DNA from: Cyanobium sp. FGCU6
GTDB lineage: Bacteria; Cyanobacteriota; Cyanobacteriia; PCC-6307; Cyanobiaceae
Assembly (NCBI GenBank): GCA_024958655.1
Contig: JANWUR010000003.1
Coordinates: 186,001 to 250,000 of the forward strand
Length of the DNA: 64,000 bases
Reading direction: 5' to 3'
Under the pieces are notes generated by a model, which did not search any database, was not told where the DNA came from, and saw nothing but the letters and a program-made list of their open reading frames with translations. A program made the position numbers and the translations under genes. This document shows positions 8,691-44,223 of this stretch, piece after piece. Each line of letters opens with the position of its first letter. Within the stretch, counting starts at the first letter, position 1.

Positions 8691-8772
8691 GGGAGTGCCC
8701 GGCAGGAGGCCGGGCTCGATACCACCAGAGGAATAAGTAACCCTCCACACATCTCATTTGACCAAAACCCCC

Positions 8773-12630: not shown

Positions 12631-14481
12631 TCAGGGCCTGCGCCCGCTGCCGCTGAAGCCATGGGGCGTTACCCGCGCCTGGTCGGCCACACTGAGATCG
12701 GCCCAGTAGCGCTTCACCTTGTTGGCCAGGTAGGCGTAGTCGATTTCGCCGGTGACACTGCTGCGCTGGATGAACAGGTCGACCAACCGCTCGAAGTACT
12801 GCTCACGGGCCAGGCGCCGCACCTGGCTGTCCCCGTTCTGAATGAGATGGGCCAGGGTCTGGAATTCGGGGTTGAGCTTGTCGATCTCCGACAGCTTCAC
12901 CCCATCCTTCTGCGGCCGCTGGTCACGGTGTTCACGCGCTTCCAGCTCACGGAAGTGTTCCGCCATCTCATCGGGCAGCTGCCGCTGCAGCTCGGTGAGC
13001 AGTTCGCCCCGGTGCTGGCCGCAGAGTTCGGAGAACGACATCTTCGTCTCATCCTTGAGCGAGTAGTGCAGCAGCAACAGGAAGGCCCCGCCACTGGTAC
13101 CGATGGAGATCCACATCATCAACAGGCTGAGGGTCAGATCGCTGCGGCTCTCGGCCGGCGGAGACCAGAAGAAGCTCCAGGCAGCGCCGAACGCCTTCAG
13201 GCTGTCCTTCATTTCCACCGTGCCATCCGCACGGCTGCGGAAGTGTTCTTCGAACACCTGCGGCTGGCTGGTGCGCAGGAATGCCGCCGCGCTGGGCGCC
13301 TCCTGCAGCCCCTTCTCCAGGGTTTCCAGCTGCTGCGATTCGTTCGCAATCTTGCGCTCCAGGTCGGCCTTGTTGGCGGCCGCGCGGTCGCAGATTGGCC
13401 AACGCTCCCGCGGCCAGTTCTGCAGCACCCAACGCGGCTGATTGGAGGGGGCCACCCGGCGGTCCTGCCAGAGCCCGTAGGTCTCCACCGAGAGCTGTTG
13501 GTAGGCCGGGTTGTTGACCCCCACCTCCTTGAGTTGCTTCACATTGGTTTCACAGGCCTGCAGGTCCGCCAGAAGCAGGGCGTTGTTGGCGGGATCGCGC
13601 CAGGTGGCGAGCCGCTGGCGGCGCCGCTCAAAGTCGACCGCCACCAGCTCCGCAGCGCGGTGATTCACCACCCTGGGCTGGCCATTGAACAGAAAGATGC
13701 CGACACCGGTGGTGAGCGACTGGAAGGTGGAGATCCCCGCGAAGATCAGCATGGACACCACGGCGGTGCCATTGCTCTTGAGGCGATTCACCATGCCGCT
13801 GCCGCTGCGGTTCGCCACCTGCAGCAGGAACAACGAAAAGGCCGTGGCCACCACCCCACCCATTGGCGTCGACTGGAAGACGAACCTGAACAACCCCTGC
13901 GAGCCGAAGAAATCGAGCAGGGTGCTAATCGACAGCATCTGAGCCGGCAGGTGAGCCTGGTCGCGCACTTCCTTGGTCACGGCCTGATTGCCGTGCAGGC
14001 TCTCGCCGAGAGTCAAGAGCCCACTGGCGCCGATGATGCGCCGCAGCCAGCGCTTCGACTGCCTGGGGGTGGTCGACTGGTCAAACAGGTGCTGACCAGC
14101 CTGGGCCACCAGGTCCTGGCTGGTGCCGCTGGTTTCCAGGAAACGCACCAGGGCGAGGGCGGTGCCAGGCTGGCCCGAGGTGCCAACAGCAGCGGGCCGT
14201 TCACCAACAGTGCGGCGGATCACCGGCGGGGTGTGGCGCTGCTGGGGCGCCCTTGCCGTCTCGACCCTGGTGGCAGGAGTGGGAGCAAAGCCCCTGGCCA
14301 CGCGGTCGGTGACCACCCAGCGGCCATCCAACTGCTGAATGCTGCGAATCGGCCGGATCGTATCGTGATTCACGTGCTTGTCCTGCGCCGCAGGTGCAGC
14401 AGGATCGTTCAGCGGGGCCTGCGGGCGGAAGCCGTTGAAGCCGTTCGTGCCGTTGGTGTTGCCGGAGTGGAGGTTGGTCAT
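12631..14481 (-). CDS. Large membrane protein downstream of the type III effector operon, unknown
   Basis: 616 residues from the ATG at 14481 (the frame is open to 14508). A disordered N-terminus of about 100 residues is followed by predicted membrane segments near residues 190-220 (VVATAFSLFLLQVA) and 235-260 (VVSMLIFAGISTF), a soluble, coiled-coil-rich middle domain (about 270-450), another hydrophobic span (LTLSLLMMWISIGTSGGAFLLLL) and a charged C-terminal domain. It lies 108 bases after the CARF-HEPN gene on the same strand, so it may be the last gene of the cmr operon. No CARF or nuclease motif was seen. A membrane effector or anchor for the type III response is a reasonable hypothesis; no family is recognised. 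Confidence 0.7.
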   Translation of the reverse strand: MTNLHSGNTNGTNGFNGFRPQAPLNDPAAPAAQDKHVNHDTIRPIRSIQQLDGRWVVTDRVARGFAPTPATRVETARAPQQRHTPPVIRRTVGERPAAVGTSGQPGTALALVRFLETSGTSQDLVAQAGQHLFDQSTTPRQSKRWLRRIIGASGLLTLGESLHGNQAVTKEVRDQAHLPAQMLSISTLLDFFGSQGLFRFVFQSTPMGGVVATAFSLFLLQVANRSGSGMVNRLKSNGTAVVSMLIFAGISTFQSLTTGVGIFLFNGQPRVVNHRAAELVAVDFERRRQRLATWRDPANNALLLADLQACETNVKQLKEVGVNNPAYQQLSVETYGLWQDRRVAPSNQPRWVLQNWPRERWPICDRAAANKADLERKIANESQQLETLEKGLQEAPSAAAFLRTSQPQVFEEHFRSRADGTVEMKDSLKAFGAAWSFFWSPPAESRSDLTLSLLMMWISIGTSGGAFLLLLHYSLKDETKMSFSELCGQHRGELLTELQRQLPDEMAEHFRELEAREHRDQRPQKDGVKLSEIDKLNPEFQTLAHLIQNGDSQVRRLAREQYFERLVDLFIQRSSVTGEIDYAYLANKVKRYWADLSVADQARVTPHGFSGSGRRP

Positions 14482-14589
14482 CGGAGGGCTGGATTGACGA
14501 TGCACCAACCATGCCGAAGGATCCCCGATCTCTCCCCTCAGCCCGTGAGAGCGACCAGACAGTTCGTGGTGTTACAAATGGTGATTGGC

Positions 14590-15984
14590 TTACGGGCCTG
14601 CCACTGAGGGAGCCCCAATGCGCGTCAGCACTGGCTGGGTCTCGGATCCAAATAGCTGTTGGCATACAGGCAGGGCCAGCAGCTTGCGCCCGGGCAGTTG
14701 GTGGGGCGGTGGTCCCTGCTGGAAGCCAGGTTGGTCGAGGATTTCATTCACGAAGTAGCTGATGTCGCGCTGCAGCGCAGTCCACTCCGCTTCCGTCAGC
14801 GGATTGAAGCCATGGGCCAGCAGGGATCGGTTGCGTGCCTTCAGCAGGCGGAAGAACTGGCCTTTGCGTCGTTTGAAGATGCCTCCAAGACCCGCATCGC
14901 CGCGGCGCTCCAGCCAGTTGTAGAGGGCGGTGACGCCGTCACCGGCGGCAGTGACCTGGGTGCCGTCGAGGAGAAAGCAGTGATCCCGTTCCCATCGGCT
15001 CTCGGGTGAGAGCTTGAGTTCCAGGCTCACGTAGGTCTGGGCGAGCAGTTCCAGCGCCCGGTACAGCCGGGAGACGGCATCGTCATAACGACCACGTCTG
15101 CCGCGGCGCTCGGCGCTGAGCAGCAGATCCTGCACCAGCTCGTAACCCGTGATGCCATCTTCCGGCGGCACCCCATCCATGCAGCCCCGGGCCTGCACCA
15201 CCCTCTGCCACCAGGCCAGCAGATCGGGCGGCAGCGCCTCAGGGGGCAACGCCTCAGCTGCGGCGAGGGCCTCTTCCCACTGGAACTGATCCCAGCGCTC
15301 CAGGGTTTCGCAGATCGCCTGCAGCAACTTGGCTTGGTCTGCTGTTTCGACGGAGATGCGCTGGGCCTGGGCCTGGAGGAACCGCTGCACCAACTGAGCT
15401 GCCTCGCCATAGTTCTGCAGGCTGAGCACCGGCAACAACTGGGCATGCAGCTGGGAGGTGGCGTGAAGCGGAGCAATCTCCATCAACCGGGTGGACTCGC
15501 TCTGATCGATCTTCTCGAGGTTGGTGCGCGGCCCGCTCACCACACCCACATCGAGGCCGAGCTGCACACAGGCCATGGCCAAGGCGGCACTCATGCTCTT
15601 GGTGCCGCCTGTGTAATCGCCGCGGATTCGCTCCTGAAAGCGGTTGCTGCGCAACTGCAGGATGTGGTCACGGATGCGCTGGAAGGCATCGGCGAGGTCA
15701 TCGGGATCGGGGATGCCGATCAGATGCCGTTGGGGGTTGAAGTCGCTGATGCCCAGTTGCACCAGCAGGTTGGCACCCACCTCCTGCCGCCCGTCTGGCA
15801 GGTAGTGCAAGCAGGGAAAGCCTTCACCGGTTACCTGCTCCACACTCGGTTTCGGGCAGGGCGCTACCGAGCAGATGAACACCACCTCCAGGGGCTGCTC
15901 GGGCTGTTCGCGCCGCAGAGCCTGGACGGCAAAAATAATGGGATCGGGGCTGCCCCCCACGGTGACGAGGAGGATGTGGGTCAT
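14590..15984 (-). CDS. CARF-HEPN CRISPR ancillary ribonuclease (TIGR02710-like, Csm6/Csx1 type)
   Basis: 464 residues from the ATG at 15984, which overlaps the stop of the cmr6/cmr1 gene (ATGA). The N-terminal CARF domain has the loop VTVGGSPDPII (8-18) and the conserved GDYTGGTKSMSAA (122-134) that contact cyclic oligoadenylate. The C-terminal HEPN domain carries R386-SLLA-H391 (also R384 six residues before the His), the active-site pattern of these RNases. Cas10 of the adjacent operon makes the activator; binding would switch on non-specific RNA cleavage in the cytoplasm. Translational coupling to the Cmr genes indicates co-expression. Confidence 0.88.
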   Translation of the reverse strand: MTHILLVTVGGSPDPIIFAVQALRREQPEQPLEVVFICSVAPCPKPSVEQVTGEGFPCLHYLPDGRQEVGANLLVQLGISDFNPQRHLIGIPDPDDLADAFQRIRDHILQLRSNRFQERIRGDYTGGTKSMSAALAMACVQLGLDVGVVSGPRTNLEKIDQSESTRLMEIAPLHATSQLHAQLLPVLSLQNYGEAAQLVQRFLQAQAQRISVETADQAKLLQAICETLERWDQFQWEEALAAAEALPPEALPPDLLAWWQRVVQARGCMDGVPPEDGITGYELVQDLLLSAERRGRRGRYDDAVSRLYRALELLAQTYVSLELKLSPESRWERDHCFLLDGTQVTAAGDGVTALYNWLERRGDAGLGGIFKRRKGQFFRLLKARNRSLLAHGFNPLTEAEWTALQRDISYFVNEILDQPGFQQGPPPHQLPGRKLLALPVCQQLFGSETQPVLTRIGAPSVAGP

Positions 15985-17990
15985 GGCTGCGACCAAACCA
16001 GTCTTGTGAAACCAGCGCCCCCACCCCGATCCAGCAATGCCACGAGCTGCTTATGTTGCTCGCGAAGCTGGGTATTGGCATTCAGCGAGCAGCCATGCAG
16101 CACCAGGGATTCGAGATAAGCGCCCGCATGAGCTGCAATCGACACATCCCCACGGGGAGCGCTGGAAGCCTGCCGGGCTGGTGAGGGGCGCGACATGGCA
16201 CCGCCAGCGGGCCTGGACGTGGGATTGGCCGGCCGAGATGTGGCACCACCCGGCCTGGACATCGGTGAAGCAGGGCGGGAAACAGGTGAAGTTGACTGCC
16301 TGCCACCTTGCTCCCGCAGAGGAAGCAGTCGATTCCAGATCAGGCCCACCTGATTCACCTTGCCTGCCAGTTCGCTCTTGCGCAGATCCCTGGCATCCCG
16401 CCTGGGCTCCCCTTCTCTGGGCTCGTGAAACCAATGAACCGCTTCCGCATCGCTCGGATCTTTGGCTCTGCGAATCCAGATGCTCATCTGGCCTGGATCA
16501 ATCAGCTCACGCCAGCGGGCGGAGCCACCGGATCTTTGCCCAGTGGCCGCCAACCATCGGCCTGCCACATTGCGTGACTTCTGCAGCAACTGAATCAGAT
16601 CAGCCGAAGACTGCACATCAATCCAACCCGGCAGGTTCTCCGGCTCCCGCCACTGCCAGTGGCAACCGATCGGGGTTTTGCCGTAATCGGGCAGAAAGAT
16701 CCGGTGATCCGGGCGTCGCCAGCTCTTGCCAAAGCCGCCCAGCGACATGGTGATTCCATGGAGGGCTGCCAGCAATTCCGCTGCCAACGCTTCATCCTCG
16801 CCCTTGCGACAACGCCGCATGCAGCGCCACTGCAGGCGGCCTGAGGTGGCATAGATCGGTTGCTCCCAGCTACCGCGACCAGAGGAGCCCAGCTCCGAAT
16901 GGGTATCTGTGTAGGCGGTGGCGAGCAGGCCCACATTCTGACCTTCCTCGCGGCTGAGAGAGCCAAACAGGCGCCCTACAGCTTCCCGCGCAACTCTTTC
17001 ATCGGCGAGGGCTCCAAAGAGGCGCAGCGCCATGCCGCGGATGGCAGCCCTGAACATCGTGGGTCTGAATTCCGGCGTGAGATCAAGCAACTTGGCGGCA
17101 GGACCCTGCCCTTCCAGCGCACACTCGAAGATCACATCACCGCTGAGCCTACCACTGCTGCCGTAACCCACGCAGGTGCGGCCGCCGATTCCCTGACGGA
17201 GGGCGGTTTTCAGGGTCGTTTCAATCTCCTGCCACTCACTCTCAGAGATAGAGGGATCGGTGCTGCTCAGGCCGATCATCAACCGTGGCTTGTGCAGGCT
17301 CACCACTCCGAAAGCGCCACCGCTCTTGCCTCTGCCGATGCCCACCTGCCACTCCTGCTGAGGATGGGCCAGATCCAGCAGGCCTGCCGTCCAGCCAGCG
17401 TCAGCGGGCCAGGCCCCATGGAAACGAAGGATTCCTGGTCTTAGATTTTTATCGCCACAGTCACTGCCACACCAACGCTGCAGCGACTCCTGCGGGCAGG
17501 CACGACGAAACAGCCCCTTGATGCCGCTGCCTGGAATCATCGGCCAGCCTCCGGCACCGATCACCGGGCGAATCACACCTTCATCCACCCCACTGTTGCT
17601 GATCAGCCGCCAGTCGATCGGTGCCTCAATGATCTTCAGGCCATGGGTGCCGAAAGGCATGCGTCCATCCACTCGCTCCACCCATTCGTCGATCCAGGCC
17701 TGAATGTCGGAGCGCCATCCAGGTGGCGGATCCTTCGGCTTGTTGATGTATTGGCGTTGGCAGCGCCCTGGCGTCTGCGCCCGGAATTCCATCGGTACAC
17801 GCCTGGCCGTATCAACCGGTATCACTTCAGGCATGACGGGCTGCGGCAGGGAATCAAACAGAGACCCCCGCGCACTGGGGGGTGGCGTGGGCAGAGCGCG
17901 ATTCGATCCCACGGAAGCAGCAGGAGAAGAGGAGACTGGCTGGGGAGCAGGTCCCTTCGGGAACTGCTTCTTGCGCTTGTTCTTTCCCAT
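15981..17990 (-). CDS. Cmr6-Cmr1 fusion RAMP protein of the type III-B complex
   Basis: 669 residues from the ATG at 17990, about twice the size of a normal Cmr6. After a basic, Pro/Ser-rich N-terminus of about 65 residues, the first RAMP unit has the PMIPGSGIKGLFRR motif (around residue 150) and a Gly-rich loop GIGGRTCVGYGSSG. The second half has FRPTMFRAAIRGMALRLFG, EAVGRLFGSL and GGFGKSWRRPDHR, the pattern of Cmr1. No separate cmr1 exists in the operon, which supports a fusion. The C-terminus contains a Ser/Arg/Pro repeat linker (SRPASPMSRPG type) and a final small domain. Role: caps the crRNA 3' end of the Cmr complex. Confidence 0.8.
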   Translation of the reverse strand: MGKNKRKKQFPKGPAPQPVSSSPAASVGSNRALPTPPPSARGSLFDSLPQPVMPEVIPVDTARRVPMEFRAQTPGRCQRQYINKPKDPPPGWRSDIQAWIDEWVERVDGRMPFGTHGLKIIEAPIDWRLISNSGVDEGVIRPVIGAGGWPMIPGSGIKGLFRRACPQESLQRWCGSDCGDKNLRPGILRFHGAWPADAGWTAGLLDLAHPQQEWQVGIGRGKSGGAFGVVSLHKPRLMIGLSSTDPSISESEWQEIETTLKTALRQGIGGRTCVGYGSSGRLSGDVIFECALEGQGPAAKLLDLTPEFRPTMFRAAIRGMALRLFGALADERVAREAVGRLFGSLSREEGQNVGLLATAYTDTHSELGSSGRGSWEQPIYATSGRLQWRCMRRCRKGEDEALAAELLAALHGITMSLGGFGKSWRRPDHRIFLPDYGKTPIGCHWQWREPENLPGWIDVQSSADLIQLLQKSRNVAGRWLAATGQRSGGSARWRELIDPGQMSIWIRRAKDPSDAEAVHWFHEPREGEPRRDARDLRKSELAGKVNQVGLIWNRLLPLREQGGRQSTSPVSRPASPMSRPGGATSRPANPTSRPAGGAMSRPSPARQASSAPRGDVSIAAHAGAYLESLVLHGCSLNANTQLREQHKQLVALLDRGGGAGFTRLVWSQP

Positions 17991-18406
17991 CAGCCGCCGG
18001 CTCCCTTGGAGGTTTTGAGCCGCTGGGTCCACCACACCACGGCATCGCACAGGTTGGTAAGAACCGCCAGGGCTGCCTGCTGGTCCTGGGCTGGCAGATT
18101 CCAGAGATGTTCCGCCACCGACTGGATCTGACGTTCGTCATCGCTGTTGCTGCGCATCGTGGCAGGCAAAGACAGGCCGGCCTTCTGAAGAACAGCAGCC
18201 AGGGCGTGCCAGACATCGGCCACAAAGGCTGCCTTGGCCTGCTCCTTGCCCGCGAGTCGAAGATGCTCTCCCCAGAAGCGCTCCAGCCCATAAGCACAGG
18301 TAGCACGCATTTTGTGGGCCTGGTTGAGGCTGTCGGGATCTCGCTGACGTGCCTTAAGCACAATCTCCTGAGCGAGCTGATCAAGGTCGTAGGGTCGCCA
18401 AGCCAT
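17990..18406 (-). CDS. cmr5: Cmr5, small subunit of the type III-B complex
   Basis: 138 residues, all-helical, of the usual Cmr5 size. It includes the family-like N-terminal MAWRPYDLDQLAQEIV and the central YGLERFWGEHLRLAGKEQA. It lies exactly between cmr4 and cmr6 with overlapping ends. Cmr5 stacks along the crRNA-target duplex in the complex. Assigned by size, helical content and operon position. Confidence 0.8.
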   Translation of the reverse strand: MAWRPYDLDQLAQEIVLKARQRDPDSLNQAHKMRATCAYGLERFWGEHLRLAGKEQAKAAFVADVWHALAAVLQKAGLSLPATMRSNSDDERQIQSVAEHLWNLPAQDQQAALAVLTNLCDAVVWWTQRLKTSKGAGG

Positions 18407-19245
18407 CAGCGCACCTCCTGGCCCACAGGGGCGGCAAGGGTGACTTCGCAGCGACCGAAGCCGACGCTTTCCAATCCTCCGAAATAGAGCTCTTCAGCAT
18501 CCTTGCTGCCTAATGGCTTCCAATCGCTGGCCTTCTCCGGCTTCAGCGCCAGGGGGAACACCAGCACACTGCCCTCCGGCAGGGCTTCCACGTTGAAGAA
18601 GGCGCCACCATCCACCTTCTTCTCCTGATCATCGAGTTTCACCCGGCTCTGGCGATAGAGAGCCATGTCGTGGATCAGCCCGATGTCAGCGTCATCGACC
18701 ACCACCAACCGATCCGCAGGGATTTCATCCTCCAGGGCCTCAGGGATCCAGTCCTGCAGGTCATCGCTGGGTTTCACCTCAAGAAAACCAAGATTGAAGA
18801 ACAGGGTGATGCCCTTCTCCCCCTTACGCCCCTTGAGTTTGGAGCTGCAGGTGTAGGGCTTCGGGATAGCACGGCTAAGGCTGTCTGGATCCACGATCGC
18901 CGCATATCGCCGCAGCAGCCGCGGACAACTCACCCACACCACAGGTTGTCCAGGGCAGAACACCGGCAGCCAGACGAGAGAGGCATATTCGAACTTCACC
19001 CTGCCTTCGCTGATGTCATCGGTTCCGGCACCGGCTTCGCTGCCATACCAGTGGTTGCATTTATTTGATGCAATACGGCGCATCTCCGCTCGGAAGCGAC
19101 CGCGGATCGAGCTGCCGGGGATGATGCCGGTCTGGGTGTAGGCATCGCGGAAAATCAAGTTGAGATTGCCGGCTTCCTCGCCGGCGGAGGCGCCCACATG
19201 CAGCGGGGCGAGGGTGCGGATCAGGCCGTATCGGCGTTCGTACAT
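18406..19245 (-). CDS. cmr4: Cmr4, backbone RAMP subunit of the type III-B complex
   Basis: 279 residues from the ATG at 19245; the frame is open upstream to 19512 but overlaps cmr3 in another frame. Features: LAPLHVGAS near residue 15, RDAYTQTGIIPGSSIRGRFR (the conserved RAMP loop) and a Gly-rich C-terminal GGLESVGFGRCEV. Cmr4 normally cuts target RNA every six bases using one Asp just before this loop (family pattern G.VD.P..R). Here the aligned segment reads GNLNLIFRD, so that Asp seems to be replaced by Leu. By eye this looks like a catalytically dead backbone, a point that needs a structural alignment. Confidence 0.85.
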   Translation of the reverse strand: MYERRYGLIRTLAPLHVGASAGEEAGNLNLIFRDAYTQTGIIPGSSIRGRFRAEMRRIASNKCNHWYGSEAGAGTDDISEGRVKFEYASLVWLPVFCPGQPVVWVSCPRLLRRYAAIVDPDSLSRAIPKPYTCSSKLKGRKGEKGITLFFNLGFLEVKPSDDLQDWIPEALEDEIPADRLVVVDDADIGLIHDMALYRQSRVKLDDQEKKVDGGAFFNVEALPEGSVLVFPLALKPEKASDWKPLGSKDAEELYFGGLESVGFGRCEVTLAAPVGQEVR

Positions 19246-19312
19246 CGGCTGGTTGGGGCGTGGGTGGGTATGGTCTGGCCGCAGAGCTGGCCTCGAAGGG
19301 GGCCGGGGAGCG

Positions 19313-20410
19313 TCAGGGTGGCGAGTGAAGGGGCAGGGCGAGGGCCGTGCCCAGGTGCTTGAAGGAGAAGCCCTCCTTTGGGAACCAGTCCTCAATCCAC
19401 TGGCTCCAGGGCTCAAGGGGATCACCAGCGACCTGGTAGCACGTGCCGGCGGGCACGGCCCAACGGCCGCGGGAGAGCCGTCGTTTTTTTGCGATGCCGT
19501 TGGGCGCGGCATCGGCGCGACCAGCCCCGAGCCGATGGCGCCAAGGCCGGGCCTTCTCGGTGAGGATGCCGGGAGGTTGGCCGTTGTGGTGCCAGGGAAA
19601 CATCCCGCCGTTCTGCCCGGTGGTGATCGGTTCGCGTCGCGAGAGCCTGGGCCCGCCCCAGAGGCCCGGTGTGATCAGGGCGAACGGTGCCGTAAGCGGC
19701 TGGTTGAGCAGGTGTTTCAGTAGTGGGGGGATCTCCTTGATGCGCAGCTGCACCAGATGGCCCTCCCCCCCGAAGCGATACACGCCATCGGCAACGGAGT
19801 GGCTGCTGAGGTAGGCGAGGCAGACCCCTGGCTTCAGAGCGATTCCGTACTCCAGAAAAAGGGCCCCATCGCCGGCACTGACCCGTTCATCGTCTTTCAG
19901 CCGGGGGTGCAGATGGGAGACGGCTCGCCAGGGGTTGTCGTGGATGGCGATCTCCTCCTCCTTTCCCACCTTGGCCCAGTCGCTGAGGGCGATCCAGCCG
20001 CCGCTTGGCGCCTTGCGCGGGGGTTCATCTTGATCGGCGGGTTGCCAGCCATCCGGGACGTACTCGCCGTTGCCCTCGGTCCAAACCAGCCGCCGCCGAC
20101 TGACACGCGGGCCACCGTCCTCCTGTTCCTGCAGGAGAGTGAAGGGCGCCGGCAGCATCAGGCCCTGCTCCGGATCGAGCCAGAACGGCCCGGCGGTGTT
20201 GAGCAGGCTGAACCCATCGGCAGACCTCACTTCCTCGGGGTCGAGCACGCTGTTCAACAGTCCGGCCAGGGCCGGAGAATCCGGCGGGAAGTGCTCGGAG
20301 GCGCGGCCGGTGAGCGCGGCGGGCGAGAGCAGGCGGCCACTTGCGCCATAGAGCAGCCCGAGCGGCTCCAGCAGGATCAGATGGTGAAAGTGGGTAGGGA
20401 CGGCTGTCAT
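19313..20410 (-). CDS. cmr3: Cmr3, RAMP subunit binding the crRNA 5' tag
   Basis: 365 residues from the ATG at 20410, whose ATGA overlaps the cmr2 stop. N-terminal LILLEPLGLLYG is the typical Cmr3/Csm4-like opening strand. There follow a central FTLLQEQEDGG region and Gly-rich loops (GVYRFGGEGHLVQL, TPGLWGG). Length is normal for Cmr3. It partners Cas10 at the foot of the complex. Confidence 0.85.
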   Translation of the reverse strand: MTAVPTHFHHLILLEPLGLLYGASGRLLSPAALTGRASEHFPPDSPALAGLLNSVLDPEEVRSADGFSLLNTAGPFWLDPEQGLMLPAPFTLLQEQEDGGPRVSRRRLVWTEGNGEYVPDGWQPADQDEPPRKAPSGGWIALSDWAKVGKEEEIAIHDNPWRAVSHLHPRLKDDERVSAGDGALFLEYGIALKPGVCLAYLSSHSVADGVYRFGGEGHLVQLRIKEIPPLLKHLLNQPLTAPFALITPGLWGGPRLSRREPITTGQNGGMFPWHHNGQPPGILTEKARPWRHRLGAGRADAAPNGIAKKRRLSRGRWAVPAGTCYQVAGDPLEPWSQWIEDWFPKEGFSFKHLGTALALPLHSPP

Positions 20411-22248
20411 GGCTGCACTCCCAGCGAGAACGCGGAGCGTTGCTTCTCCAGGCCCGCCATCACCCGCCCCAGATCCCAGAGCCACTGGTCGAATCGACGT
20501 CCCTTCTCCGGCGTAGCGAAGCTGGCGCGATAGGTGGGCCGTGCTGCAGGAGCTTCCTGCTGTGCGCCAGCGGTTGTGGCGGCCTGGCCTGGTTTCTCCG
20601 GTTCATCCGGAAGCTGGCAGCCGGGGAAGTAGGCGCTCCAGAGTGTGCGGGCCGTGCGGAGGCAGGACTGCTCAGCCGCTGCCCTGGCTGCTGGGTCGTC
20701 AGGCAGATAAGCGAGTGCCTGGCGACTCTGCAGCCACTGCAGATCTTCCACCAGATGACGCCAGTTGGGGGGTTTGCCATCGCGGGATGCCTTCCGTGAA
20801 CGACCTTCGCGATCGGTGTAATGGCTGCGGATCGGCTCAAGCCAGCTCCAGGGGCAGGTCCACTCCAAATAATTGCCATTGGCGTACACCAGCCGAAGAG
20901 CGAAGCGGTTCTTGCCGCGGCCCTTGGCGCTGGCTTCTGCTTCGCGGGCATGCTGCAGCGCTTCCCGCTGGGGCACACTGGTGTCAGACCAGGCCAGCCC
21001 CATCGAAACAGTGAGCTGTGGGTTGCCGCTCGAGTCCGGTTGGGAAGCCTTGGCCCAGAGCTTCTGATAGATCTCGATCCAGCTCCAGAGATGGTCGGCG
21101 GTGAGATCCTCCAGGCCGGGCTCGGATTCATGCAGAGCACCGAACAGATCATCGCCGCCGGCATAGACCACCGTGGCATGTTTCGGCATTGCTAGGGGTA
21201 CAGCTCTGTAAAGACCTTTTGCCCAGTCCAGCATTGGTCCGGTGAACTGACGCAGGGCCTCCTCTTCGCTGCTCAGCTTGGCCAGAGATTCGAGATGACC
21301 ACCAATGCCATCCCCGTCAGCCATGAACCAGATAATAGATTCAGGGGCATCACTATGGAACCAGAACCCTAAATCTAGGTCGTGATCAGAGTCATCATCA
21401 GGATAATCAGCTGTTTGGATGTCCAGAAAGTCATCCAAGTCAATTGCATCATCGCCCCTGTTTCTGAGTCGTTGAAATCGCTCCGGCAAGAGATTTCTAT
21501 CTTTCAATTCATATATTGTATAAGGCTTGTCGCCAGGGGCGAGAGCCCATTTCATCACTTCTGGATAAGTGATCAAGCGCTTCACCAGTTCGGTCAGGGA
21601 GATTTCTTCGTTATCGCCAGCAAAGGGGTCGCCTAGATGCTGGCTTCCACGCAACGACCGCAGAAAGTCCCGAGCCTCCTTCTGGATCAATCCGGGAGGC
21701 AGGGTCCGCGGATCCTGCTTGGCTCCCATCGTGGGGCGAACCACCGCTTCTACGGAAGAGAGGGTGGAGCTTTCGCCGGTCCAGTTGGGGATCGTCCAGT
21801 TGCGCTGCTGCTTGGTGATCGCCAGCACCTTGCGCGCCTCCTGAATCGTGGCGCCCTGGCCGTGGAACATCTCCCAGGAATGGAGCTCGCAGGCCTTCCA
21901 GCTGCTGTGCCAGTCGAAGACAATGGTCTTCAGCTCAGGCTGTGATGAGAAATATTTCTCAATCCAGGTGCGGCACTCCTTGAGCACCTTTCCCCAGCAA
22001 CGAAGCAGCGCCGCCTCTGCGCGCTGTCTGCTGTAGTCGCCCTTGATCACGAGCACGTTGGGCACGCCCCGCGATCCCTTCACATTCGCTGGACTCACGA
22101 TCTCCAGGCTCAGAGACTCGGCATCCAGCTTCTGAGCGCAGGCGAGGTGAGAGATCAACAGGGAGCTGCCGTACAGGTCCCGCAGCTTGCGGGAGGCCAT
22201 GATGAAGCCCTGCACCGGCGCGAAGGTGACGGCTGTGTAGGTGGTCAT
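20407..22248 (-). CDS. cmr2: Cmr2/Cas10, cyclic-oligoadenylate synthase subunit, lacking the HD domain
   Basis: 613 residues. It begins directly with the first palm-like domain (TYTAVTFAPVQGFI, SRKLRDLYGSS), so the N-terminal HD nuclease present in many Cas10 proteins is missing. The catalytic palm has MADGDGIGGHLE (309-320) and YAGGDDLFG (362-370), giving the two metal-binding sites needed to make cyclic oligoadenylates from ATP after target RNA binding. The C-terminal helical domain is complete. It is the first gene of the minus-strand operon cmr2-3-4-5-6/1-CARF-HEPN and divergent from the Card1-like gene. The likely output is signalling, with no DNase activity. Confidence 0.93.
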   Translation of the reverse strand: MTTYTAVTFAPVQGFIMASRKLRDLYGSSLLISHLACAQKLDAESLSLEIVSPANVKGSRGVPNVLVIKGDYSRQRAEAALLRCWGKVLKECRTWIEKYFSSQPELKTIVFDWHSSWKACELHSWEMFHGQGATIQEARKVLAITKQQRNWTIPNWTGESSTLSSVEAVVRPTMGAKQDPRTLPPGLIQKEARDFLRSLRGSQHLGDPFAGDNEEISLTELVKRLITYPEVMKWALAPGDKPYTIYELKDRNLLPERFQRLRNRGDDAIDLDDFLDIQTADYPDDDSDHDLDLGFWFHSDAPESIIWFMADGDGIGGHLESLAKLSSEEEALRQFTGPMLDWAKGLYRAVPLAMPKHATVVYAGGDDLFGALHESEPGLEDLTADHLWSWIEIYQKLWAKASQPDSSGNPQLTVSMGLAWSDTSVPQREALQHAREAEASAKGRGKNRFALRLVYANGNYLEWTCPWSWLEPIRSHYTDREGRSRKASRDGKPPNWRHLVEDLQWLQSRQALAYLPDDPAARAAAEQSCLRTARTLWSAYFPGCQLPDEPEKPGQAATTAGAQQEAPAARPTYRASFATPEKGRRFDQWLWDLGRVMAGLEKQRSAFSLGVQP

Positions 22249-22645: not shown

Positions 22646-23731
22646 ATGACCAGCCTTCTCGTCGGAATGGTGGGCATGGCTCCGGCCAGCATCGTTCTCA
22701 GCGCACGGGCGTTTCAGCCGCAACGCATCCTGCTCGTCCACAGCGAGGTCACCGAAACCATCGCCCGCATCGTTCAGGAGCAGCTGGGGGGTGATGTCAG
22801 GGTCCTGTGCGTGGACGCCAACCGGTTGGAGGCCATCAGCGTGGCCGTGGCTGAGGCCCTCGAGTCACTGCAGGAGATCACCCATCTGATCGTGGACATC
22901 ACCGGCGGGACGAAGGCCATGTCGATCGGGCTATGGGAGGGTACCCGCGGCCTGCTCAGTGACCATGGAGATCTCCGGCGCACGACCGTGTATCTCACCC
23001 GCGAAGGTGCGTTATTGCAGGCCGAAAGCGGGCAGCCTGTAGCCGTAGCCGACAATGTTGCCATCGCTCCTGAGGAGGTGATCCGCTGGAACCGGCCTGC
23101 CGCGCAGGTCACCACCAACTGGAGTGGAACCCCTGATGAGGTGGGGGAAGCAGCGCGTCGGCGACGGCGGGTGTGGCAGCAGCTGGCCAAAGCGTTGACA
23201 GCAGGCCGGTGGCGGCCTAACGTTACTCGTCCGCAGCGTCGATTCATTCCCTGGGTCATGCTGGCCTCTCTGCCAGAGGGATTCCTGGCCCTGGAGAACG
23301 GAACCATTGAGGTGCCGCTGGAACATCTTCAGCACAATGTCTGGCTGGAGGAGCTGGCACTGCTGGAAGTGGCCGATGCCGTGAAGAAGCTGCCGGGTGT
23401 GCGCCTGGCTCTCGGTGCCACCGTGCGCGGAGTGGATGCCGGCAACGTTGAATTTGATCTGGTGGCCACACGCGGCACCCGCATCCTGGTGGTGGAAGCC
23501 AAGACGGTCACCACGGGAGCAGGAGCCGATCTGTCGAAGAAGGCAGCCCACGTCACATCCATGCTGGGTCCGACCGCCAAGTTGTTGGCCTTTGTGCCCA
23601 AGGTGTTCGGCAGCAAGCCACCGGCGGAACAGGCACGGAACGACATCCAGGGCAACCTGGGCCGCAACGGCCATGTGTGCCGCACCATTGCCGATCTGGG
23701 CGAGCAGGCCCGGGCCATTCTCGGCGGCTGA
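22646..23731 (+). CDS. Card1/Can2-like CARF nuclease (CRISPR ancillary effector)
   Basis: 361 residues. The N-terminal CARF half (about 1-145) holds a first strand MTSLLVGMVG, a loop HSEVTE and the ligand-binding DITGGTKAMSIG (84-95). The C-terminal half is a PD-(D/E)XK nuclease: E235 in NVWLEEL, D271 in VEFDLV and E284-A-K286 in VVEAK. This matches the DUF1887 (Card1/Can2) family, which binds cyclic tetra-adenylate and cuts DNA and/or RNA. It is divergent from cmr2 and ends 78 bases before the leader of array 1, so it sits between the effector operon and its array. Metal-dependent nicking is expected from the family; substrate choice cannot be read from sequence. Confidence 0.88.
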   Translation: MTSLLVGMVGMAPASIVLSARAFQPQRILLVHSEVTETIARIVQEQLGGDVRVLCVDANRLEAISVAVAEALESLQEITHLIVDITGGTKAMSIGLWEGTRGLLSDHGDLRRTTVYLTREGALLQAESGQPVAVADNVAIAPEEVIRWNRPAAQVTTNWSGTPDEVGEAARRRRRVWQQLAKALTAGRWRPNVTRPQRRFIPWVMLASLPEGFLALENGTIEVPLEHLQHNVWLEELALLEVADAVKKLPGVRLALGATVRGVDAGNVEFDLVATRGTRILVVEAKTVTTGAGADLSKKAAHVTSMLGPTAKLLAFVPKVFGSKPPAEQARNDIQGNLGRNGHVCRTIADLGEQARAILGG

Positions 23732-23808
23732 TCACCACTACATCAGCAGTCCCAGCACCCCTGCGCGGCCACCGCTAGGAAGGGCTGGTGTTGCAGTGCC
23801 TTTCCACT

Positions 23809-24006
23809 TGCCCTTTGCCGTTTCCGCGCACCCCCCTGCCGATCGCCCAGAACCCCAGTGTTTGCGTCGATCGGCGCGCGGCCTTGCAGCGCAACGGATC
23901 TCAGCGTTTTCCACAGGCTTGACAGACCCGGCTGGCGCTGCCAAGGTAGGGGGGTGCGCAAACGGCCTTCGGATCGCTTGCCGCGCAGGCCCTCTCGGGG
24001 GCCACC
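23809..24006 (+). promoter_or_regulatory. CRISPR leader 1
   Basis: About 198 bp, nearly identical to the leaders of arrays 2 and 4 and homologous to that of array 3. It holds a promoter-like pair, TTGACA (23919-23924) and CAAGGT (23942-23947), 17 bases apart, reading into the array. The end abutting the first repeat (GCAGGCCCTCTCGGGGGCC) is conserved in all four leaders and can form a short hairpin, so it is a candidate leader-anchoring site for spacer integration. Confidence 0.8.
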
Positions 24007-25491
24007 GTCACCACTCGTTGGTGACACCTATTGATTGGAAACAATTACGATCGTTCATTGCCTTCTGTTCAGGGTGATATATCACCGTCACCACTCGTTG
24101 GTGACACCTATTGATTGGAAACCCAGCGCATCCACTGGTCGAATGTCCTCAGAAGCTGCTTTGGTCACCACTCGTTGGTGACACCTTTTGATTGGAAACC
24201 AGCTGTGTTTTGCCGTTTTGAAGCTCGTCCATCGAGGGGGTCACCACTCGTTGGTGACACCTATTGATTGGAAACGTGAAACGGTATCCCGTGACAAAAG
24301 GCAGGAGGGCCTGTCACCACTCGCTGGTGACACCTATTGATTGGAAACCCTCGCGGAGAGGAGTTGGAGAGGATCATCTGGAGCTCATGCTCCAGATGTG
24401 TCACCACTCGTTGGTGACACCTATTGATTGGAAACACCCGTGTGGGGATTTTTGTGGTGAGGCTTTTTGCTTTTAGTCACCACTCGTTGGTGACACCTAT
24501 TGATTGGCAACTATGCCCTAATATATTCAGGTGAATCTACTGTCACACTAGTCACCACTCGCTGGTGACACCTATTGATTGGAAACTGCACTCTCGTGCA
24601 AGGGCTTTTGCTTCATCAAAAGAGAGGGTCACCACTCGTTGGTGACTCCTATTGATTGGAAACTGCCTATAGGTTTTTTAGGGATTAGTACCTATAGAGG
24701 GTCACCACTCGTTGGTGACACCTATTGATTGGAAACGCAGTTGCTCTACCCGCCCAAAGCGCCGATGAGAGAGTCACCACTCGTTGGTGACACCTATTGA
24801 TTGGAAACGCCTCGTTGGCGGTTGTAGGGATAAGATTCCCGACGAAGTCACCACTCGTTGGTGACACCTATTGATTGGAAACGCGATCACCTCATCCCAG
24901 GTGGAGGTGAATGGAGTTCCCTCGATGTCACCACTCGTTGGTGACACCTATTGATTGGAAACCAGCTTTGGCTGCTGGAGAGTTGTCCGTATAGTTTGGA
25001 GGTGTCACCAACGAGTGGTGACACCTATTGATTGGAAACAGCTGAGTGTATTGGCGGAGTCAAAGACGGCAGGATACCAGCCGTCACCACTCGTTGGTGA
25101 CACCTATTGATTGGAAACCCCGAACGAGGAGGACCGGCAAGAACCACCTTCTTGTTTGTCACCACTCGTTGGTGACACCTATTGATTGGAAACGAGCTTA
25201 CCAAGGTGAGCCCCACGGTACCCGCTCCAGCTGTCACCACTCGTTGGTGACACCTATTGATTGGAAACCACATGCAAGTGCCGTCTTTACTGACTAGCGA
25301 TCCCTTAAGTCACCACTCGTTGGTGAAACCTATTGATTGGAAACTGGAAAGTCTCTACTCGCGTGGAAGTGAGACTGTTTGTCACCACTCGTTGGTGACA
25401 CATATCGATTAGCAACTTCAGCCAGTGGCTATGTAGGCGTCATGGACGAGCTCGTATCACCACTCATTGTTGGCCCCGATTGATTGCAAGC
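24007..25491 (+). CRISPR. CRISPR array 1 (20 repeats, 19 spacers)
   Basis: Repeat length is 36 bp. The 5' part is a perfect hairpin, GTCACCA-CTCGT-TGGTGAC. The 3' part is single-stranded ACCTATTGATTGGAAAC. Repeats start at 24007, 24087, 24164, 24240, 24313, 24400, 24476, 24551, 24628, 24701, 24773, 24847, 24927, 25004, 25083, 25158, 25233, 25309, 25381 and 25456. Spacers are 36-51 bp. The last two or three repeats are degenerate (trailer end), so the leader is on the left. The repeat at 25004 has its hairpin loop inverted. It lies downstream of the Card1-like gene. Confidence 0.97.
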
Positions 25492-25769: not shown

Positions 25770-26410
25770 CTCTCCCCCCCAAGGATGCCGCCGCGGTGCG
25801 GCGCCAAGAGCTTGCCGCCCAGTTGCTGCGTGGTGAGCCGGTGATGGTCACCCAGCAGGGTGCCATCCAGCCAGCCAGCGCGCATACCAACAACGAGGTG
25901 GCGATCACCGTGCCCGAGGGCAAGCTCGCCGCTCCCTCCCTCTACTGGTATGAGCGCGATGCCGAGCTGTTCCAGGCGGAACAGGAGGCGATGCAGCACT
26001 TCTTTCCTGGCTTTCGTGCCGATCGCCTCGCCGACGGGCGCATGTCGTGGCTGGGTTCGCTGGCCAGCGGCGTGCCGGGCAGCAGCCGCATCTGGCATCT
26101 CCAGGTGGTCTATGACCACGACCATCCCCACAACAACAGCTGGGGCGGTTCGATCCATGTATTTCCGGTGGAACCCGATCTCATGGCCATCCAGCAGCAG
26201 CTGGGTGAACCGATCCCCCACACCCTCCACCAGGACGGCAGCGGTGCGCTGAGCATCTGCACCGTGGAGAAACAGGCCTTTCGCCATGGCCGCGACCACT
26301 CCAGTACGGCCGCCAGCAGCCTGGCCTGGGCGGCCAAGTGGATCGCTGCCTTCGAGCTCTGGATGCTGGGTGAACTCAGCACCAGCGACTTTGCCGGCCA
26401 TCGCATCTGA
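25766..26410 (+). CDS. Prokaryotic E2-like (UBC-fold) protein
   Basis: 214 residues. The C-terminal part matches bacterial E2 families: strands IWHLQVVYDHDHPH and SIHVFPVEPDL, then LHQDGSGALSIC165, with Cys165 in the position of the E2 catalytic Cys, followed by the terminal helix WAAKWIAAFELW. It opens an operon E2-JAB-E1-small membrane protein with 4 bases to the next gene. A role in transferring a ubiquitin-like protein is inferred from the fold and from having E1 and deconjugase neighbours. Confidence 0.78.
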   Translation: MTLPPKDAAAVRRQELAAQLLRGEPVMVTQQGAIQPASAHTNNEVAITVPEGKLAAPSLYWYERDAELFQAEQEAMQHFFPGFRADRLADGRMSWLGSLASGVPGSSRIWHLQVVYDHDHPHNNSWGGSIHVFPVEPDLMAIQQQLGEPIPHTLHQDGSGALSICTVEKQAFRHGRDHSSTAASSLAWAAKWIAAFELWMLGELSTSDFAGHRI

Positions 26411-26414
26411 TCCC

Positions 26415-32230: not shown

Positions 32231-32381
32231 GGAACGTGTTTCATGGCTGGAACATGCCCATCCTGAGCAACCCCTGGCTCTGTGGCGGCAGCTCCCGTGG
32301 GACTGACCAATCTGCAGCACGGCGCCCCTGGATGCAGGGTGGCTGCCTGGTCTGCGATGCGGCTTCAGGCGATCGGCTGGC

Positions 32382-32579
32382 CTGCCCTTTTCCGGTTCCG
32401 CGCACCCCCCGCCGATCGCCCAGAACCCCAGTGTTTGCGTCGATCGGCGCGCGGCCCTGCAGCGCAACGGATCTCAGCGTTTTCCACAGGGTTGACGCCG
32501 CGTGCCGGCGCTGCCAAGGTAGGGGTGTGAGCAAACGGCCTTCGGATCGCTTGCCGCGCAGGCCCTCTCGGGGGCCACC
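32382..32579 (+). promoter_or_regulatory. CRISPR leader 2
   Basis: Nearly identical to leaders 1 and 4. Promoter-like pair TTGACG (32492-32497) and CAAGGT (32515-32520), 17 bases apart. It ends with the shared hairpin-forming block next to the first repeat. Confidence 0.8.
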
Positions 32580-33975
32580 GTCACCACTCGTTGGTGACAC
32601 CTATTGATTGGAAACGATGTCTCCAGACACCTGAGTTGGTGTGGAGGGAAGTGTCACCACTCGTTGGTGACACCTATTGATTGGAAACTTTAAGACCTCA
32701 GTAGCCTCTTGAATAACAGAATCAGGAGTCACCACTCGTTGGTGACACCTATTGATTGGAAACGCCCACTGCTTATAATCTATATTGCAAAAAGGCTGTG
32801 AAAGTCACCACTCGTTGGTGACACCTATTGATTGGAAACTGTTTGAGGCATGATAACCATCCTATGTGGGTACAACAACTTGTCACCACTCGTTGGTGAC
32901 ACCTATTGATTGGAAACGGTTCGAGCGTAAGTTGGGGAGGGGGTGAAGATTCGAGTCACCACTCGTTGGTGACACCTATTGATTGGAAACAAGCTCTTCT
33001 TTTGTCTGTGCTCGCTTAGCAGCCGTGTCACTACTCGTTGGTGACACCTATTGATTGGAAACACCATCGCTGGCAAAAACTGGAGCTGATGGAATAATCA
33101 AGTCACCACTCGTTGGTGACACCTATTGATTGGAAACTACACCTCAGGAGCTGGCTGAGAGACCGCCGGGAGGGTCACCACTCGTTGGTGACACCTATTG
33201 ATTGGAAACGTGGTGAGGGTGAGGGCCGTGGAAGCCAGCAGGATGCGGGCGATGTCACCACTCGTTGGTGACACCTATTGATTGGAAACCCAACTTTTGG
33301 AATCTATATTCCTGAACTGATTTTGTTGTCACCACTCGTTGGTGACACCTATTGATTGGAAACCAGCAGTACACCGGCACTACTTATCAATGAGACCCGA
33401 TGGTCACCACTCGTTGGTGACACCTATTGATTGGAAACACACCCAGCAGTGCTAGGATCGCCATCGCCATGATGGCGACGGTGTCACCACTCGTTGGTGA
33501 CACTTAATTGATTGGAAACCGTGCCAGGCCTTCTTAAGGCTCTCATCCGCATTTCCCCAGTCACCACTCGTTGGTGACACCTATTGATTGGAAACGCCGC
33601 AAGCTCCGCGTCATGATTCACAGTTTCCTGGAACCAAGTCACCACTCGTTGGTGACACCTTTTGATTGGAAACGAGTAGCCTGAGGCTCCTCCGACTTCA
33701 TCCCTCTTGTGTCACCACTCGTTGGTGACACCTATTGATTGGAAACTGATGTAGCTATTAGGGTCTGGCAATGTTGTAAATGGTCTTAGTCACCATTCGT
33801 TGGTGACACCTATTGATTGGAAGCCGTAACAAGCGACCGCGCCGTAGATGTTCGCGATCTCGTCACCACTCGTTGGTGACACCTATTGATTGGAAACTAT
33901 GAAAGTCATTTCAATGTACAGAACAGCAACTCCAACATGGTCACCACTCGTTGTTGACACCTGTTGATTGGAAAC
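32580..33975 (+). CRISPR. CRISPR array 2 (19 repeats, 18 spacers)
   Basis: Same 36-bp repeat as array 1. Repeats start at 32580, 32653, 32728, 32804, 32882, 32955, 33027, 33102, 33174, 33254, 33328, 33403, 33483 (37 bp, one inserted base), 33560, 33638, 33711, 33789, 33862 and 33940. A strongly degenerate extra repeat lies at about 34012-34049, just before cas1 copy A. Leader is on the left, decay on the right. Confidence 0.97.
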
Positions 33976-35722: not shown

Positions 35723-36357
35723 GTCACCACTCGTTGGTGACATCTATTGATTGGAAACTCAGTCGGTTCTGGCTCGGAGCCCAGTCCGAGGGACGAGGTC
35801 ACCACTCGTTGGTGACATCTATTGATTGGAAACAACCCACCCCAAGTATATTCACAACACATTGATTTTGGGTACGTCACCACTCGTTGGTGACACCTAT
35901 TGATTGGAAACTACTCAGCAAGGAATACGAATAAACAAGTTCCTATCCTGTCACCACTCGTTGGTAACACCTATTGATTGGAAACATGACTTCTTGGAGT
36001 GAAATACAGACATTTGAGTCTCCGTCACCACTCGTTGGTGACACCTATTGATTGGAAACCATTGTGATGTGAAGTTTCCAGGAGATTCCCCGCTGAGGGG
36101 AGTCACCACTCGTTGGTGACACCTATTGATTGGAAACGCCCTCTGCCCCCTACGGAAGGCGAAGAGATTTACCTGTCACCACTCGCTGGTGACACCACTT
36201 GATTGGAAACTTCCCCCTGGAGTCATAGACTTGTTCCCCATAGATTCTGGTCACCACTCGCTGGTGACACCACTTGATTGGAAACACGCAAATTTTTGAA
36301 GCTGTGAGAGAAAGTTCCCCCGTCACCACTCGCTGGTGACACCACTTGATTGGAAAC
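35723..36357 (+). CRISPR. CRISPR array 3 (9 repeats, 8 spacers)
   Basis: Repeats start at 35723, 35798, 35876, 35950, 36024, 36102, 36175, 36250 and 36322. The first two have ACATCTATTG, and the last three share a variant tail, ACCACTTGATTGGAAAC, with a CTCGC loop. A degenerate repeat at 36393-36428 and a scrap near 36463 follow. Leader is on the left, next to cas1-cas2 copy A. Confidence 0.97.
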
Positions 36358-43051: not shown

Positions 43052-44223
43052 GTCACCACTCGTTGGTGACACCTATTGATTGGAAACCGTGTACCTGCAC
43101 CTCAGGGGTATGCAATGTTCCCTCTGTCACCACTCGTTGGTGACACCTATTGATTGGAAACTCACGCCTATTCGTAAAGCGAGTTACTACAAATGGCATA
43201 ACTGTCACCACTCGTTGGTGACACCTATTGATTGGAAACTGTCTTACCGCCAACACATACCTTTACATCTACATACTGTCACCACTCGTTGGTGACACCT
43301 ATTGATTGGAAACGTATTGCCGCTAATGTCCGTTACGTCCGCTCCGCTATCAGTCACCACTCGTTGGTGACACCTATTGATTGGAAACTCTCCTTCAGAA
43401 ATATCCTCAATACCAAGTACCCACACGTCACCACTCGTTGGTGACACCTATTGATTGGAAACAACAAAACTTTCATCGTTCTAAGGTACAATTTCCCCAT
43501 CACGTCACCACTCGTTGGTGACACCTATTGATTGGAAACCGCACTTGGCGTATTTGGACTGAACCTGAGTCTTGTCGATTGTCACCACTCGTTGGTGACA
43601 CCTATTGATTGGAAACTCTTGATTTTGGTGGGCATCTTTTGAGTTCTCCCATTTGTCACCACTCGTTGGTGACACCTATTGATTGGAAACAAGCGATGAA
43701 TCACCCGAGAGGCAAGGTGTTCAAGAAATCCCGTCACCACTCGTTGGTGACACCTATTGATTGGAAACGGGTGTTTTTAAAAATTATTTTTTGTCAGTAG
43801 ATATTCGTCACCACTCGTTGGTAACACCTATTGATTGGAAACCAGCTAAGACTGGGAGATTTACAGAGAACAGAAATGAAGTCACCACTCGTTGGTGACA
43901 CCTATTGATTGGAAACAGATTGACTTTGAACAGTATTTAGTTCTGCGTTGATGCGGGTCACCACTCGTTGGTGACCCCTATTGATTGGAAACCTGACAAG
44001 GGGGCCAGTAGGCGTCGCAGTCGAGCGATCATGTCACCACTCGTTGGTGACACCTATTGATTGGAAACTTAAGGTCTTGCAGGGTAAACATGATGATAAA
44101 GCGATAAAGTTACCACTCGTTGGTGACACCTATTGATTGGAAACCCATAAATCGCTGAAGTTTCTGAATTCGGGTCATGTGTCCTTAGTCACCACTCGTT
44201 GGTGACACCTATTGATTGGAAGA
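43052..44223 (+). CRISPR. CRISPR array 4 (16 repeats, 15 spacers)
   Basis: Repeats start at 43052, 43126, 43204, 43278, 43353, 43427, 43504, 43581, 43655, 43733, 43807, 43881, 43957, 44033, 44109 and 44188. Most are perfect; the last ends GGAAGA. Spacers are 38-43 bp and many are strikingly AT-rich compared with the genome, as expected for AT-rich phage targets. Leader is on the left. Confidence 0.97.

What the first reader, a model, noticed from the sequence alone, without database searches (positions are those of the whole stretch)
18406..22248. Type III-B complex that may signal but not cut
Cas10 starts at the first palm and has no HD nuclease. Cmr4 appears to have Leu where the catalytic Asp lies before the R(D/E)x(2)T loop (GNLNLIFRD against G.VD.P..R). 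The cyclase site (DGD, GGDD) is intact. If both nucleases are missing, immunity must depend on the CARF effectors, and target RNA cleavage could not end signalling, which would raise the need for a ring nuclease.
Basis: partly seen in the sequence, partly recalled or inferred. Interest (0 to 1): 0.72.

Follow-up and report, generated by a model that had tools for sequence, protein, structure and literature searches.

The report
CRISPR sensor that signals without cutting
A bacterial RNA-sensing immune complex found across cyanobacteria appears to have lost both of its own cutting sites and to work only by raising a chemical alarm that switches on separate nucleases, a state that resembles a mutation reported to be unobtainable or toxic in two laboratory microbes.

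Summary
The window carries a complete type III-B operon: cas10, cmr3, cmr4, cmr5 and a Cmr6-Cmr1 fusion. Its Cas10 has no HD domain and an intact cyclase. Its Cmr4 lacks the catalytic Asp. Profile alignments place Asn29 at that site, not Leu; this is the same change as the D26N mutation that abolishes target RNA cleavage in Pyrococcus.
It is not particular to this genome. In 111 of 111 deduplicated relatives, all cyanobacterial, the Asn is invariant. All 99 Cas10 proteins checked keep GGDD, and none has room for an HD domain. The sister group, which includes the Synechocystis III-Bv system, also lacks the Asp but mostly keeps an HD domain.
Of 72 loci with adequate flanks, 57 carry a CARF effector and one more carries NucC/SAVED.
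Best reading (0.66): a signalling-only III-B lineage that cuts target RNA slowly or not at all. Residual cutting, by Cmr4 or by an invariant Asp/Arg pair in the Cmr6-like domain, is not excluded. No activity was measured here.

The parts
20407..22248 (-). cas10 (cmr2), 613 aa, no HD domain, palm1 at the N-terminus
   Evidence: PADLOC Cas10b PDLC02051 E 1.6e-121 over residues 1-596; Pfam Cmr2_N from residue 5 and Cas10-Cmr2_palm2
21148..21159 (-). GGDD cyclase motif, residues 364-367 of Cas10
   Evidence: GGDD present in 99 of 99 family Cas10 proteins
21310..21318 (-). DGD motif, residues 311-313 of Cas10
19313..20485 (-). cmr3 (ORF; true start probably a little downstream of 20485)
   Evidence: Pfam Cas_Cmr3 E 9e-9, PADLOC Cmr3
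18406..19245 (-). cmr4, 279 aa (family-conserved start MYERRYG)
   Evidence: TIGR02580 E 8e-22, below its curated cut-off; AlphaFold2 model Z 22.1 to P. furiosus Cmr4 4w8w
19159..19161 (-). codon AAC for Asn29, at the position of the catalytic Asp (D26 in P. furiosus)
   Evidence: alignments; 111 of 111 Asn; codon
19174..19176 (-). codon GAA for Glu24, invariant acid in the same loop, candidate substitute
   Evidence: 111 of 111; codon
17990..18406 (-). cmr5
   Evidence: PADLOC PDLC01476 E 1e-52
15981..17990 (-). cmr6-cmr1 fusion, 669 aa from the ATG at 17990
   Evidence: PADLOC Cmr6 PDLC01212 E 1.5e-158; model: N-terminal part matches Cmr6 3x1l_H (Z 10.6), C-terminal part matches Cmr1 9l7c_A (Z 21.8)
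17583..17585 (-). codon GAT for Asp136 of the Cmr6-like domain, five residues before Arg141; invariant in the 24-sequence sample
14590..15996 (-). CARF-HEPN effector (Csx1/Csm6 type, TIGR02710), with RSLLAH matching the HEPN pattern
   Evidence: TIGR02710 E 6e-37 over cut-off; PADLOC CARF1--CARF_HEPN E 3e-81; motif
22646..23731 (+). divergent CARF-PD-(D/E)xK (Card1/Can2-like) effector
   Evidence: PADLOC CARF4--CARF_PDDEXK E 2e-15; weak Pfam CARF_Card1 and Card1_endonuc
12631..14508 (-). C3a124 family gene, type III-associated, unknown function, co-directional with the operon
   Evidence: PADLOC C3a124 E 5e-37
24007..25416 (+). CRISPR array 1, 19 repeats
32580..33975 (+). CRISPR arrays 2 and 3, 12 and 6 repeats
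35723..36357 (+). CRISPR array 4, 9 repeats
43052..44223 (+). CRISPR array 5, 16 repeats

Best explanation
This is a member of a cyanobacterial type III-B lineage that works as a sensor and alarm and cuts little or nothing itself. The crRNA-guided complex (Cas10, Cmr3, several Cmr4, Cmr5, a Cmr6-Cmr1 fusion) binds a matching transcript, and the Cas10 palm domains make a cyclic oligoadenylate. CARF effectors (here a CARF-HEPN RNase and a CARF-PD-(D/E)xK nuclease) bind it and do the damage. The Cmr4 backbone carries Asn where the metal-binding Asp belongs, so target RNA is held uncut, or cut very slowly. Signalling would then end when RNA leaves, when effectors shred it, or when the CARF proteins degrade their own activator. 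Shown here: gene content, missing HD domain, the Asp-to-Asn state and its fixation, intact cyclase motifs, effector association, and the domain make-up of the fusion (from a predicted model). Inferred: absence of cutting, the signal molecule, crRNA processing and the way signalling ends.
For: The Asp is absent in 111 of 111 deduplicated relatives and Asn29 is invariant, while 13 of 14 conventional Cmr4 proteins keep Asp. D26N in P. furiosus Cmr4 abolishes target RNA cleavage but leaves DNase activity (PMC7192623); D26A in V. metoecus also abolishes cleavage (PMC8682760). GGDD is kept in 99 of 99 Cas10 proteins, and at most 66 residues precede the palm1 motif in the 95 where the motif was found. 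57 of 72 well-flanked loci have a CARF effector cluster, and L107 has NucC and SAVED. The window's genome has no other convincing Cas10. The loop is under strong constraint rather than decaying.
Against: In the B. fragilis complex the Cmr4 D27A variant still cleaves, only more slowly (PMC10600005). An invariant Glu24 lies in the same loop, and the model leaves that loop undefined (residues 17-31 under pLDDT 50). His16, of the proposed centre H15/D26/E227, is retained. The Cmr6-like domain has an invariant Asp/Arg pair spaced as in Csm3. 14 of 72 well-flanked loci have no recognised effector nearby. Nothing was assayed.
Confidence: 0.66

Rival explanations
1. Cmr4 still cuts, slowly. Either Asn29 supports weak metal binding and the RNA 2'-OH does the chemistry, or the invariant Glu24 (or another loop acid) takes the place of the missing Asp.
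For: B. fragilis Cmr4 D27A cleaves more slowly rather than not at all. Glu24 is 111 of 111 invariant, and the sister group also keeps an acid just upstream of the conserved Gly. The proposed mechanism is RNA-assisted (PMC11026444).
Against: D26N abolishes cleavage in P. furiosus and D26A in V. metoecus. By profile alignment Glu24 lies about five residues upstream of the catalytic position. The model cannot place it.
Confidence: 0.2
2. Cutting has moved to the end of the complex. The Cmr6-like domain of the fusion carries Asp136 and Arg141 spaced as in Csm3 (D then R five residues later), giving one cut near the crRNA 3' end that ends signalling.
For: Asp and Arg are invariant in the 24-sequence sample; 85 of 87 readable family members have the Asp. 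The N-terminal domain matches Csm3 chains at Z about 9.
Against: The conventional Cmr6 proteins read here (Thermus, Vibrio) and DtCmr Cmr6 have Glu at about the same place, yet D26N in Cmr4 alone abolishes cleavage in P. furiosus, so an acid there is probably not sufficient. A structural role is more likely.
Confidence: 0.09
3. The complex acts mainly by binding transcripts, as RNA silencing without cutting, and signalling is secondary.
For: 14 of 72 well-flanked loci show no recognised effector. A Microcystis III-B complex gave about 10-fold T4 protection in E. coli without Csx1 (PMC11855584).
Against: Cyclase motifs are kept in 99 of 99 Cas10 proteins. The Microcystis system was picked for its longer Cas10, so it is probably the HD-bearing sister type; its family was not determined here.
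Confidence: 0.05

Closest known systems
Subtype III-Bv, Synechocystis sp. PCC 6803 CRISPR3 (pSYSA, sll7090-sll7087)
   Same: Order cas10-cmr3-cmr4-cmr5-large Cmr6/Cmr1-like protein; Cmr4 also lacks the Asp (EGNLLGIARE); repeats end in the same 13 nt, ATTGATTGGAAAC, reported as its crRNA tag
   Different: Its Cas10 is about 980 aa with an N-terminal LLHDP motif; Cmr4 is only about 31% identical to the window's
Vibrio metoecus VmeCmr with NucC (PMC8682760)
   Same: Type III-B, Cas10 without HD, immunity through nucleotide signalling, very slow target RNA cutting
   Different: Cmr4 keeps its catalytic Asp (D26) and cuts at 6-nt spacing; the effector is NucC
[quoted passage not shown]
   Same: Cas7 catalytic Asp not conserved
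   Different: They keep an apparently active HD and have a dead cyclase, the reverse of this system
P. furiosus Cmr4 D26N and S. islandicus Cmr4-alpha D27A mutants (PMC7192623, PMC9368842)
   Same: Same residue lost
   Different: Laboratory mutants that could not be obtained or caused cell dormancy or death while the Cas10 activities were intact; here the state is fixed in nature

Membership tests
Type III-B CRISPR-Cas (Cmr) | Cas10/Cmr2 with palm domains | tested here: met
   PDLC02051 E 1.6e-121; Cmr2_N and palm2 domains
Type III-B CRISPR-Cas (Cmr) | Cmr4-type Cas7 backbone | tested here: met
   TIGR02580 E 8e-22, just under its curated cut-off (78.3 against 87 bits); Z 22.1 to 4w8w
Type III-B CRISPR-Cas (Cmr) | Cmr1, Cmr3, Cmr5 and Cmr6 subunits | tested here: met
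   Cmr3 and Cmr5 by HMM; Cmr6 and Cmr1 as one fused protein
Type III-B CRISPR-Cas (Cmr) | Catalytic Asp in Cmr4 (common, not required for classification) | tested here: not met
   Asn29; 111 of 111 relatives without Asp
Subtype III-Bv (Synechocystis CRISPR3 type) | Gene order and a large Cmr6/Cmr1-like protein | tested here: met
Subtype III-Bv (Synechocystis CRISPR3 type) | Repeat with 13-nt tag ATTGATTGGAAAC | tested here: met
   tag from PMC3575380
Subtype III-Bv (Synechocystis CRISPR3 type) | crRNA maturation by RNase E, without Cas6 | tested here: inconclusive
   No PF10040 Cas6 match in the genome, but other Cas6 models were not tried and processing cannot be tested here
Subtype III-Bv (Synechocystis CRISPR3 type) | Large Cas10 of about 1000 aa with an N-terminal domain | tested here: not met
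   613 aa, palm1 at the N-terminus; in the Cmr4 tree this family is separate from the III-Bv type
Signalling-only type III complex | No HD nuclease | tested here: met
Signalling-only type III complex | No target RNA cleavage | not testable with these tools
   Needs a biochemical assay
Signalling-only type III complex | Cyclase motif and a CARF/SAVED/NucC effector | tested here: met

The most novel reading that the evidence does not exclude
A whole lineage of natural type III-B complexes has swapped its backbone nuclease for a fixed RNA-holding Asn loop, so that each target RNA gives a long-lived signal, and ends that signal by a route not yet described (RNA release, effector self-limitation, or a single cut by the Cmr6-Cmr1 fusion) instead of target cleavage.
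Probability: 0.3. Interest if true: 0.82.

Novelty: new variant of a known kind. Interest (0 to 1): 0.63.

Why it matters
Target RNA cleavage is held to be the off-switch of type III signalling (PMC6053304). In P. furiosus the D26N strain could not be made unless effectors were also disabled (PMC7192623), and in S. islandicus D27A causes autoimmunity and cell death (PMC9368842). Here the same change is fixed across cyanobacteria with the cyclase intact and effectors beside it. That makes a direct question testable: how does a type III system avoid runaway signalling without cutting its trigger? If these complexes truly do not cut, they are also natural high-gain RNA sensors, of use for detection.

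Tried and rejected
1. A structural placement of the loop: the AlphaFold2 model is confident overall (pTM 0.80) but residues 17-31 are under pLDDT 50, so an acid cannot be placed at the catalytic site or excluded from it.
2. An HD domain in frame upstream of cas10: rejected; the open frame extends only three codons.
3. Another type III complex in the genome supplying RNase: only one convincing Cas10; the two further palm2 matches are partial and lie in 814- and 335-aa frames, taken to be GGDEF-like proteins and not verified.
4. Ring nucleases: Csx3-AAA in 7 of 72 neighbourhoods, one further Csx3 match among 121 small neighbours, Crn1 in 0 of 38 genomes. No Csx15, Csx16, Csx20 or Crn2 appeared among the families listed, but those lists show only 25 families and some neighbours were left out, so their absence is not established.
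6. My first regex count of the loop motif failed because it was written wrongly; redone.
7. Literature: no paper found in the held library that reports loss of the Cmr4 Asp in cyanobacterial III-B; most subscription papers, including the main III-Bv paper (Behler 2018), are not held.

Full report
What is there. The minus strand from 22248 down to 15981 encodes a type III-B operon: cas10, cmr3, cmr4, cmr5 and a large Cmr6-like protein. It is followed by a CARF-HEPN effector (14590-15996) and a C3a124-family gene (12631-14508), and preceded, divergently, by a CARF-PD-(D/E)xK protein (22646-23731). Five arrays with 62 repeats and 57 different spacers lie at 24-44 kb on the plus strand. The AlphaFold2 model of the large protein aligns with Cmr6 in its N-terminal part (Z 10.6) and with Cmr1 in its C-terminal part (Z 21.8). 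All six Cmr subunits are therefore present, two of them fused.

Cas10. The protein begins at palm1: Cmr2_N matches from residue 5, and the open frame extends only three codons upstream. DGD and GGDD are intact. In 99 relatives GGDD is always present, and in the 95 where the palm1 motif was found at most 66 residues precede it, too few for an HD domain (general knowledge: about 200 residues).

Cmr4. The 368-aa ORF starts too far upstream; relatives share the start MYERRYG, so the gene is 18406-19245. The catalytic loop of conventional Cmr4 reads G-x-(I/V)-D-x-P-(I/V)-x-R; here it reads G-N-L-N-L-I-F-R-D, one residue shorter. phmmer against solved Cmr4 chains, a family profile against the same chains and a profile-profile comparison with 11 conventional Cmr4 all pair Asn29 with the catalytic Asp. 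Either way the residue is not acidic. Asp-to-Asn at this position is the D26N mutation that abolishes target RNA cleavage by the P. furiosus complex while leaving its DNase active (PMC7192623); D26A in V. metoecus also abolishes it (PMC8682760). In B. fragilis, however, D27A only slows cleavage (PMC10600005), so loss of the Asp is not proof of zero activity.

How widespread. A search of 386 genomes of the phylum with the Cas10 model and one scan of genome contigs with the Cmr4 alignment gave 118 Cmr4 frames, 111 after removal of duplicates; all 80 loci from the contig scan are cyanobacterial. None has the Asp, and Asn29 is 111 of 111, as are Asn27, Glu24, Phe32, Arg33 and Asp34. One pattern used in the contig scan contains the loop itself, so that set is biased towards it; but the loci were collected through Cas10 without reference to Cmr4, and all 35 Cmr4 aligned (the window among them) agree. 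Strict conservation of the loop speaks against decay and for a retained role, presumably in holding target RNA.

Relatives. Two further cyanobacterial groups exist. Group 2 includes Synechocystis PCC 6803 CRISPR3, the III-Bv system; its Cmr4 loop (EGNLxGIARE) also lacks the Asp (14 of 14), and its Cas10 proteins have 166-264 residues before palm1, with an LLHD motif in 9 of 14. Group 3 (4 loci) has Asp or Glu shifted by one place, and an HD motif in all four. Of 14 Cmr4 on the conventional side 13 keep the Asp. In the tree all three cyanobacterial groups lie on one side of a fully supported branch. The simplest reading is one loss of the Asp position in the cyanobacterial lineage, then loss of the HD domain in the window's family. 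The root is not fixed and some branches are long, so the order is inferred. The window's repeats end in the same 13 nt, ATTGATTGGAAAC, that form the crRNA tag of Synechocystis CRISPR3 (PMC3575380). No PF10040 Cas6 was found in the genome, in keeping with RNase E processing as in III-Bv, but not shown.

Effectors and the off-switch. Among 72 loci with at least 5 kb on each side, 57 have a CARF effector cluster within 9 kb, and one more (L107) has NucC and SAVED proteins. This supports immunity through signalling. Known stand-alone ring nucleases are not enriched: Csx3-AAA near 7 of 72 loci, Crn1 in 0 of 38 genomes, no Csx3 match in the window's own genome. A published survey found a ring nuclease in 39% of loci with a cA4 effector (PMC12409355), counting more families than I could. 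So either effectors limit themselves, or RNA release is fast, or the off-switch is unknown.

Rivals. Glu24 could act as a relocated acid. It is invariant, but by profile alignment it lies about five residues upstream of the catalytic position, and the model does not define the loop. The Cmr6-like domain carries an invariant Asp136 and Arg141 with the Asp-to-Arg spacing of Csm3. The conventional Cmr6 proteins read here have Glu at about that place, and cutting is nonetheless abolished in P. furiosus Cmr4 D26N, so this is a weaker possibility.

Verdict. A real, clade-wide, double loss of nuclease sites in a type III-B complex with an intact cyclase: a new variant of a known kind. That it does not cut is the likeliest reading but has not been tested.

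Noticed in passing
34181-35026 and 40149-40994: Two cas1 copies (about 80-84% identical DNA, 5966 nt apart), plus a third at G000:C13:116329-117168; suggests a duplicated array-plus-cas1 unit
   Followed up: partly
23791-24042, 32364-32615, 42836-43087: Three copies of a roughly 250-nt leader-like sequence (84-92% identical), each directly before an array
   Followed up: no
26286-28410: JAB protease-like gene overlapping a ThiF/E1-like gene, next to array 1, resembling the E1/JAB parts of CBASS-type ubiquitin-like modules; a ThiF-family cluster also lies near 6 other loci of this family
   Followed up: partly
8758-10941: AAA_33 kinase-like protein with a C-terminal WYL-like region; a similar AAA-WYL gene lies near 34 of 72 loci of this family, mostly divergent from the operon, so it may be the regulator
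   Followed up: partly
L206 (Microcystis aeruginosa NIES-2481) and PMC11855584: The Microcystis study assumes that Cmr4 cuts with Asp residues, but the sister group with the large Cas10, including the NIES-2481 Cmr4, has no Asp at that site
   Followed up: partly
L197-L200, Cmr4 loop: A third cyanobacterial III-B group whose loop has Asp or Glu shifted by one position (GNILDIVRE); whether it cuts is an open comparison
   Followed up: no
L203 (G018, same phylum, other class): Another Cmr4-like protein without the Asp (GALKNPLLRE), outside the cyanobacterial III-B clade
   Followed up: no
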